From a virus, in IMG/VR virus record IMGVR_UViG_3300038856_000065, positions 1 to 40,696 of that record: a DNA stretch of 40,696 nt, one strand, 5' to 3'. Below are positions 15,489 through 16,182 of the stretch, in pieces. Each line of letters starts with the position of its first letter. Within the stretch, counting starts at the first letter, position 1. The notes under the pieces are model-generated. The model made no database searches and had not been told where the DNA came from. It worked only from the letters and a program-made list of their open reading frames with translations. The position numbers and the translations under genes were made by a program.

Positions 15489-15572
15489 GGGAGGGTAGCT
15501 CAGCGGATAGAGCGGTTTTCTTGCAAGAGTGAAACAGATTTCAGGTCGCAGGTTCGAATCCTGCCCCTTCCA
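15489..15572 (+). tRNA. tRNA-like gene with enlarged anticodon region
   Basis: Acceptor GGGAGGG pairs with CCCTTCC (one G-U), D-stem GCTC/GAGC with an 8-nt loop, T-arm GCAGG-TTCGAAT-CCTGC, discriminator A; CCA is not encoded. A canonical 7-nt anticodon loop does not form: GTTTT pairs with GAAAC around an 11-nt loop CTTGCAAGAGT, and a GAAA/TTTC variable hairpin can compete. If the loop starts as CTTGCAA the anticodon would be TGC (Ala). The gene is 84 nt. Confidence 0.78.
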
Positions 15573-15586
15573 CAAAACCAAGTGAT

Positions 15587-15907
15587 ATGGAAAACATGAC
15601 GACATTAAGAGTAGACTTAGAAATAAGCGCCCAAAAAATAGCAAACCATTTAATGATTCACAATGAAACTATTGAGGATCAAATTTCGAAAGGAATCCAA
15701 AATGCTATTGATGAATTGACTGACGAGCATAGCTTTGTTGATTTCATAAAAGAAGCTACGAAGAAAAACATTAAAGAAGTAATTAATTCTACAATTTTAA
15801 GCTGGGAGTTTAGAAGCAAAATAACTGAAGCTATAAATAAAAGGCTAGGAGAAAAGATACAAGAATACGCGGATAGTGTTGCGGATGAAGTTTTTAAAAA
15901 GCTATAA
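15587..15907 (+). CDS. Hypothetical protein, 106 aa
   Basis: A soluble helical protein with regular hydrophobic spacing, suggesting helical bundles or coiled coils. It lies between the tRNA-like gene and the tRNA-shaped RNA candidate. No family recognised. Confidence 0.72.
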   Translation: MENMTTLRVDLEISAQKIANHLMIHNETIEDQISKGIQNAIDELTDEHSFVDFIKEATKKNIKEVINSTILSWEFRSKITEAINKRLGEKIQEYADSVADEVFKKL

Positions 15908-15912
15908 TTAAC

Positions 15913-16067
15913 CCCAACGGAGTGGCGGAATAAGACGCTTATGGAAGATGGTGAGAATCCATAAAGTGCACGTGGATAGTAACACAGTGCTGCCATAAAT
16001 CGAAAATAAGCAAGTGTACATAGCCTAAAATAGAATGCAGGTATGAAACAACCCTGCCTCCGTTGGG
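15913..16067 (+). ncRNA. Candidate tRNA-shaped structured RNA, 155 nt
   Basis: A 10-bp closing helix pairs CCCAACGGAG (15913-15922) with CTCCGTTGGG (16058-16067). Two bases (TG) then lead to a D-arm-like GCG-N8-CGC; next comes TTATGGA-N12-TCCATAA (15939-15964); a domain closed by GTGCAC/GTGTAC (15966-15971, 16014-16019) follows; last is GCAGG-N11-CCTGC (16037-16057), which abuts the closing helix as a T-arm does. The order and junction lengths are those of a tRNA with an oversized variable region, and gtggcggaat..gacgc recalls tRNA-Leu. Alternatively, AACCC/GGGTT plus TTTT near 16050-16071 forms a small terminator. Confidence 0.55.
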
Positions 16068-16086
16068 TTTTAAGAAATGTAAAATC

Positions 16087-16182
16087 ATGAAGAAGCGAAA
16101 CCAAATAAAAACCAGAGAGCTAATTGTGACCGTCTTAGTGTGGGTCGCGATAGCTATCTACATTATCTTAACCAATGGATAA
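16087..16182 (+). CDS. Single-TM small protein, 31 aa
   Basis: MKKRNQIKTRELIVTVLVWV and onward: a basic N-terminus and one membrane helix, ending LTNG. It begins 20 nt after the structured RNA and overlaps the next tiny TM gene by 8 bp. N-in topology is predicted by the basic start. Confidence 0.55.
   Translation: MKKRNQIKTRELIVTVLVWVAIAIYIILTNG

What the first reader, a model, noticed from the sequence alone, without database searches (positions are those of the whole stretch)
15913..16067. tRNA-shaped structured RNA of about 155 nt
Between two genes lies a stretch whose helices occur in exact tRNA order: a 10-bp closing helix, 2 nt, a 3-bp D-arm-like hairpin, a 7-bp arm with 12-nt loop, a 72-nt domain with its own closing helix, then a T-arm-like hairpin touching the closing helix. 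It is too large for a tRNA and lacks CCA. It could be a tRNA-derived decoy, a tRNA-like regulator, or a processing substrate. An alternative terminator at its 3' end would allow switching.
Basis: partly seen in the sequence, partly recalled or inferred. Interest (0 to 1): 0.78.

Follow-up and report, generated by a model that had tools for sequence, protein, structure and literature searches.

The report
Phage tRNA-framed RNA with swappable middle
This phage carries a small RNA built on a tRNA-like frame whose decoding half is replaced by a large, rapidly exchanged domain; dozens of unrelated phages carry relatives, so it is a real, largely unrecognised RNA family of unknown function, distantly related to the 'manA' motif.

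Summary
At 15913-16067 (+) there is a 10-bp closing helix, UG, a 3-bp D-like arm, a variable middle and a T-like arm abutting the closing helix. Pattern scans of IMG/VR found more than 50 distinct relatives in varied phages. In 43 aligned relatives all 8 closing pairs and all 6 T-stem pairs change on both sides (covariation 0.774; shuffled 0.205; slid 0.08-0.16). In 22 relatives fetched by T-arm alone, D-loop GAAUAAGA is kept in 20, and 7 of 7 D-stem variants stay paired. The frame resembles tRNA-Leu, but the canonical elbow letters (G18G19, U55C56) are mostly missing. The middle is 35-192 nt, often with a pseudoknot-like helix. At one orthologous site in four related phages it is replaced wholesale between the same arms. 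The nearest Rfam family is manA (RF01745): below its cut-off, but full-length in five contigs (E 1e-3 to 3e-7); in cyanophage S-CREM1 manA lies flush between two tRNAs. Most likely it is a trans-acting stable RNA: the frame serves maturation and stability, the middle is the effector, plausibly in phage-host conflict. The switching terminator has no support. Function is untested.

The parts
15913..15922 (+). 5' strand of the acceptor-like closing helix (CCCAACGGAG)
   Evidence: the homologous helix shows two-sided changes at 8 of 8 pairs in relatives
15923..15924 (+). UG linker (tRNA positions 8-9)
   Evidence: UG precedes the D-arm also in relatives fetched by the T-arm alone; part of the search string
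15925..15938 (+). D-arm-like hairpin GCG-GAAUAAGA-CGC
   Evidence: in 22 relatives fetched by T-arm alone the loop is kept in 20 and 7 of 7 D-stem variants are compensated
15939..15964 (+). 7-bp arm with 12-nt loop at the anticodon-arm place
   Evidence: single-sequence fold only
15965..16036 (+). 72-nt domain; inner helix 15966-15971/16014-16019; part of the hypervariable middle
   Evidence: fold only; in relatives the middle is 35-192 nt and not alignable
16037..16057 (+). T-arm-like hairpin GCAGG-UAUGAAACAAC-CCUGC
   Evidence: 5/5 outer T-stem pairs show two-sided changes in relatives, 6/6 in the alignment; same 11-nt loop type in L014, L025, L044
16058..16067 (+). 3' strand of the closing helix (CUCCGUUGGG)
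   Evidence: R1 model hit 15915-16065, 70.3 bits, the only hit in the window (the window is one of the 43 sequences in the model)
15489..15573 (+). neighbouring tRNA gene, same strand, 340 nt upstream; a context feature, not part of the element
   Evidence: ARAGORN, RF00005 49.6 bits, fold

Best explanation
It is a phage-encoded small structured RNA on a tRNA-Leu-like frame: acceptor, D- and T-arms enclose a large middle domain that replaces the anticodon arm and variable arm. Shown by sequence: the three frame helices, the near-invariant D-loop, the T-loop signature, the variable and exchangeable middle, and presence in varied phages. Inferred: it is transcribed with its same-strand neighbours, its ends are cut by host tRNA-maturation enzymes, and it persists as a stable RNA. 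The middle then acts in trans on a host factor, most plausibly in phage-host conflict (for example decoying or inhibiting a tRNA-binding or tRNA-cutting defence protein), with the frame giving maturation, stability and perhaps access to tRNA-binding proteins.
For: Covariation of acceptor and T-stem: 224 cells with two-sided changes, score 0.774 against 0.205 shuffled and 0.08-0.16 slid. D-stem compensated in 7 of 7 variants with the loop kept. Loop-only pattern: of 162 distinct matches over held loci, 20 have all three helices, 138 none, 4 in between; given acceptor and T-stem, D pairs 20/20. Structural scan of shuffled loci: 0 hits against 54 real. T-loop first letter T in 40/42 and fifth A in 42/42, as in tRNA T-loops. 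A register-fixed helix ending 2 nt before the T-stem: at least 6 Watson-Crick pairs in 13/52 against 0.9 expected. Middle swap at one site: L063, L096, L098 and L030 share 5' flanks and arms but have three unrelated middles; L096 and L098 have a 98.8% identical middle yet compensated acceptor and D-stem changes. No gene family shared by more than three loci. Same-strand tRNAs close by: L052 2 nt, L011 8 nt, L065 about 10 nt; manA flush between tRNAs in S-CREM1.
Against: No expression, processing or binding data. Most loci have no ARAGORN tRNA nearby. The window element encodes no CCA. Canonical elbow letters are absent, so recognition by RNase P and the CCA enzyme is not assured. The conflict role rests on exchange of the middle at one site (four phages) and on analogy.
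Confidence: 0.5

Rival explanations
1. Cis-regulatory element or riboswitch: the RNA controls the gene downstream, as Rfam types manA (Cis-reg) and as proposed for manA.
For: Distant relation to manA; manA was proposed as a 5'-UTR riboswitch candidate (PMC2864571); in P-SSM2 manA lies just upstream of purL.
Against: Downstream genes are unrelated and at variable distance; the middle, where a ligand pocket would lie, is not alignable; manA lies flush between two tRNA genes in S-CREM1; no terminator found at the site.
Confidence: 0.15
2. Degenerate or intron-bearing tRNA-Leu: a tRNA relic, or a tRNA that still decodes after removal of an insert.
For: D-arm nearly that of tRNA-Leu; the R1 model cross-hits the tRNA-Leu of S-CREM1 (28.1 bits) and of syn9 (31.5 bits at an annotated tRNA-Leu).
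Against: Compensatory changes show selection on the present fold, so not a decaying relic; RF00005 does not match the element even at E 10; in the window the 7-bp arm has a 12-nt loop and there is no Leu-type variable arm; no common intron signature was seen in the middles.
Confidence: 0.1
3. Anti-defence decoy tRNA in the narrow sense: it mimics the substrate of one tRNA-cutting defence nuclease.
For: Phage tRNAs evade tRNA-targeting defence (PMC11555353; PMC13096335); domain exchange at an orthologous site.
Against: No conserved anticodon-like loop; a mimic of a single substrate would not need such varied middles.
Confidence: 0.15
4. DNA-level feature: the tRNA-like ends are recombination borders of an exchangeable cassette, not an RNA function.
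For: Cassette exchange between conserved ends.
Against: Compensatory changes that keep pairing, D- and T-loops kept on one strand, and G-U pairs fit a folded RNA.
Confidence: 0.05

Closest known systems
manA RNA motif (RF01745; Weinberg et al. 2010, PMC2864571)
   Same: Same layout: acceptor-like helix, UG, D-arm starting GAAUAA, structured middle with a possible pseudoknot, T-arm with an 11-nt UAU...AA loop. manA CM hits at the element in five contigs: E 3.3e-7, 2.1e-6, 3.3e-6, 4.8e-5, 1e-3.
   Different: 16.6-28.5 bits against a cut-off of 55.2; no matching 5' hairpin before the acceptor helix and no hairpin inside the D-loop; most relatives have a 7-nt UGAAAUU T-loop and no manA hit.
tRNA-Leu / tRNA (RF00005)
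   Same: UG linker, near-identical D-stem and flanks (UGGCGGAAU...GACGC), T-arm stacked on the acceptor, T54 and A58; some members end in A-CCA.
   Different: D-loop lacks G18G19, T-loop mostly lacks U55C56, no canonical anticodon arm, middle 35-192 nt, no RF00005 match.
Phage T4 RNA C and RNA D (species 1 and 2)
   Same: Small stable phage RNAs in a tRNA cluster, function unknown (PMC3014915; PMC9697503); rnaC has a canonical T-arm near its 3' end.
   Different: No R1 match in T4; no UG-GAAUAAGA D-arm.
Bacterial Y RNA (YrlA)
   Same: Has a tRNA-like module (from general knowledge).
   Different: No Y RNA model matched at E 10; no TROVE/Ro60 gene in 34 contigs.
tmRNA (RF00023)
   Same: tRNA-like ends around a pseudoknotted domain (from general knowledge).
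   Different: No tmRNA match to the element; far shorter; a D-stem is present. The phage of L038 carries a separate tmRNA match.

Membership tests
manA RNA (RF01745) | covariance-model score at or above the gathering cut-off (55.2) | tested here: not met
   16.6 bits in the window, 28.5 best in relatives
manA RNA (RF01745) | full-length alignable architecture, end to end | tested here: met
   model 1-192 aligned at the element in all five contigs
manA RNA (RF01745) | 5' hairpin before the acceptor-like helix and hairpin inside the D-loop | tested here: not met
   alignment against that of S-CREM1 manA
tRNA (RF00005) | match to the tRNA model | tested here: not met
   none at E 10 over 15850-16130; ARAGORN silent there
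tRNA (RF00005) | G18G19 in the D-loop and U55C56 in the T-loop | tested here: not met
   D-loop GAAUAAGA; positions 55-56 are UC in 2 of 42 seven-nt loops, GA in 32
tRNA (RF00005) | aminoacylation and decoding | not testable with these tools
   needs wet-lab work
YrlA / bacterial Y RNA | match to a Rfam Y RNA model | tested here: not met
YrlA / bacterial Y RNA | encoded near a Ro60 (TROVE) gene | tested here: not met
   0 of 34 contigs, many possibly fragments
Family described here (R1) | pairing acceptor, D- and T-stems around D-loop GAAUAAGA | tested here: met
Riboswitch / cis-regulator | constant position before related genes | tested here: not met

The most novel reading that the evidence does not exclude
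Phages maintain a widespread class of tRNA-framed RNAs in which the tRNA-like ends are a standard maturation and stability cassette and the middle is an interchangeable RNA effector turned over in conflict with hosts; the 'manA riboswitch candidate' would be one branch, and T4 RNA C and D possible functional analogues.
Probability: 0.33. Interest if true: 0.85.

Novelty: new variant of a known kind. Interest (0 to 1): 0.68.

Why it matters
It ties a well-supported structured RNA in varied phages to an orphan Rfam motif (manA) long filed as a riboswitch candidate and suggests a different reading: a tRNA-like trans-acting RNA. It gives a concrete, testable class for a decades-old question, why phages make tRNA-like stable RNAs of unknown function, and an orthologous site with exchanged payloads on which to test it.

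Tried and rejected
Homologues of the 106-aa gene upstream: none. BLAST of the element and of seven relatives against named phages: none. Rfam at gathering thresholds on 20 loci: only tRNA and tmRNA, at other places. Y RNA rejected. T4 RNA C/D as members rejected. Shared neighbour gene: none beyond three loci. Match of the middle to the rest of the window, sense or antisense: at chance level. The first pseudoknot test, with G-U pairs and free register, gave little signal; the Watson-Crick, fixed-register test did, so that test was refined after looking and needs fresh data. The 141-aa ORF on the minus strand has no Pfam match. In one clostridial order 3 of 200 genomes had a hit, two of them already known. 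S-CRM01 141065-141232 scores only 23.8 bits and lacks the D-loop: not counted as a member.

Full report
Setting. The window is a 40.7-kb viral contig. Terminase, portal, head protease and tape-measure genes mark it as a tailed phage; the best terminase matches in named phages are in Bacteroides and Parabacteroides phages at about 30% identity. The element lies among same-strand small genes, 6 nt after a 106-aa gene and 340 nt after a tRNA gene.

Observation. The opposite strand folds at least as well (z -5.4), so energy does not fix the strand; conserved loops do.

Relatives. A 16-base D-arm pattern matched 74 stretches of IMG/VR. Most carry the same anatomy: a helix ending directly before UG, a variable stretch, and a T-arm directly abutting the other strand of that helix. 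After removing duplicates 52 elements remain. A structural scan found 54 hits in 753 kb and none in shuffled copies. Hits in bacterial genomes are few.

Covariation. In 43 aligned elements 8/8 acceptor pairs and 6/6 T-stem pairs have two-sided changes; 96.6% of cells pair; the score is 0.774, against 0.205 shuffled and 0.08-0.16 for slid partners. These elements had been chosen for pairing, so I tested without that choice. Searching by T-arm alone gave 22 distinct elements: the D-loop GAAUAAGA is kept in 20, and seven D-stems other than GCG/CGC all pair: GAG/CTC, CTG/CAG, TCG/CGA, TTG/CAA, GTG/CAC, ATG/CAT, GCT/AGC. Some of those loci came from earlier searches, so the D-stem and T-stem counts are partly biased; the acceptor count is not.

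tRNA-likeness. The D-arm UGGCGGAAU-AAGACGC is close to that of tRNA-Leu with part of its D-loop, including GG, missing (compare S-CREM1 tRNA-Leu). Seven-nt T-loops begin with U in 40/42 and have A at the fifth place in 42/42, the T-loop signature; but positions 55-56 are GA in 32 and UC in 2, and the D-loop lacks G18G19, so both halves of the canonical elbow contact are changed. Five of 52 have CCA after 7 bp and one base (p = 0.0013). RF00005 does not match the window element.

The middle. It is 35-192 nt long and not alignable. A helix whose 3' strand ends exactly 2 nt before the T-stem occurs with at least 6 Watson-Crick pairs in 13/52 elements against 0.9 expected, and in several the 5' strand lies inside another stem, i.e. 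a pseudoknot. The window element does not show this helix. In four related phages (L063, L096, L098, L030) the 5' flank is about 92-95% identical up to the element, and the arms are shared, while the middles are about 39, 164, 164 and 84 nt and of three unrelated kinds. L096 and L098 share 98.8% of the middle yet differ by compensated changes in acceptor and D-stem. This is the best evidence for a selected frame with an exchangeable payload.

Context. Some elements lie beside same-strand tRNA genes: L052 (2 nt), L011 (8 nt), L065 (about 10 nt), and L050, L062, L066, L074 and L024 (about 100-210 nt). One 172-kb phage holds four R1 hits, with other tRNA-like stretches between two of them. No neighbouring protein family is shared by more than three loci, which speaks against control of one particular gene.

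Known relatives. The only relevant Rfam match to the window is manA, 16.6 bits, full length. The manA model hits the elements of L044, L002, L009 and L014 at E 3.3e-7 to 4.8e-5, none at the cut-off. In cyanophage S-CREM1 manA lies between tRNA-Leu and tRNA-Asn with no more than 1 nt between; in P-SSM2 and P-SSM4 it lies away from annotated tRNAs. manA was published as a riboswitch candidate (PMC2864571). I therefore treat this as a distant sister of manA, not a member. T4 RNA C and D, of unknown function, are analogues by setting only.

Mechanism. Shown: structure, selection on it, exchange of the middle. Inferred from tRNA biology: maturation by RNase P and 3' enzymes, and stability. Inferred and weaker: a trans-acting effector in phage-host conflict, in line with phage tRNAs that counter tRNA-cutting defences (PMC11555353, PMC13096335). 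The literature searches covered only the held open-access library, so priority cannot be claimed; I found no description of this wider family there.

Noticed in passing
window 15489-15573: The upstream tRNA gene has an enlarged anticodon loop: the apparent Ala-type loop CUUGCAA (anticodon UGC) is followed by four extra bases, giving an 11-nt loop; ARAGORN cannot assign it. L002 carries another unassignable tRNA.
   Followed up: partly
L082 (G018:C1:113100-114200): A 172-kb phage has several tRNA-like RNAs in a row; one has a second tRNA-like unit with a canonical T-arm nested in its middle, another ends in CACCA without the family D-arm.
   Followed up: partly
L110 1066-1233 (S-CRM01 141065-141232) and the gaps between its tRNA genes: Unannotated large tRNA-like stretch 36 nt before tRNA-Thr, with canonical T-arm and acceptor-like helix; the gap after tRNA-Lys also looks tRNA-like.
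   Followed up: partly
L079 3532-3568: The abiF RNA match of S-CREM1 lies in the same tRNA cluster as manA.
   Followed up: no
L056 and L061: Near-identical elements with a middle of only about 20 nt, so tRNA-sized overall.
   Followed up: no
L022, L023, L044, L060, L071, L073: Identical acceptor arm GAGCGCG/CGCGCTC in different phages with different middles.
   Followed up: no
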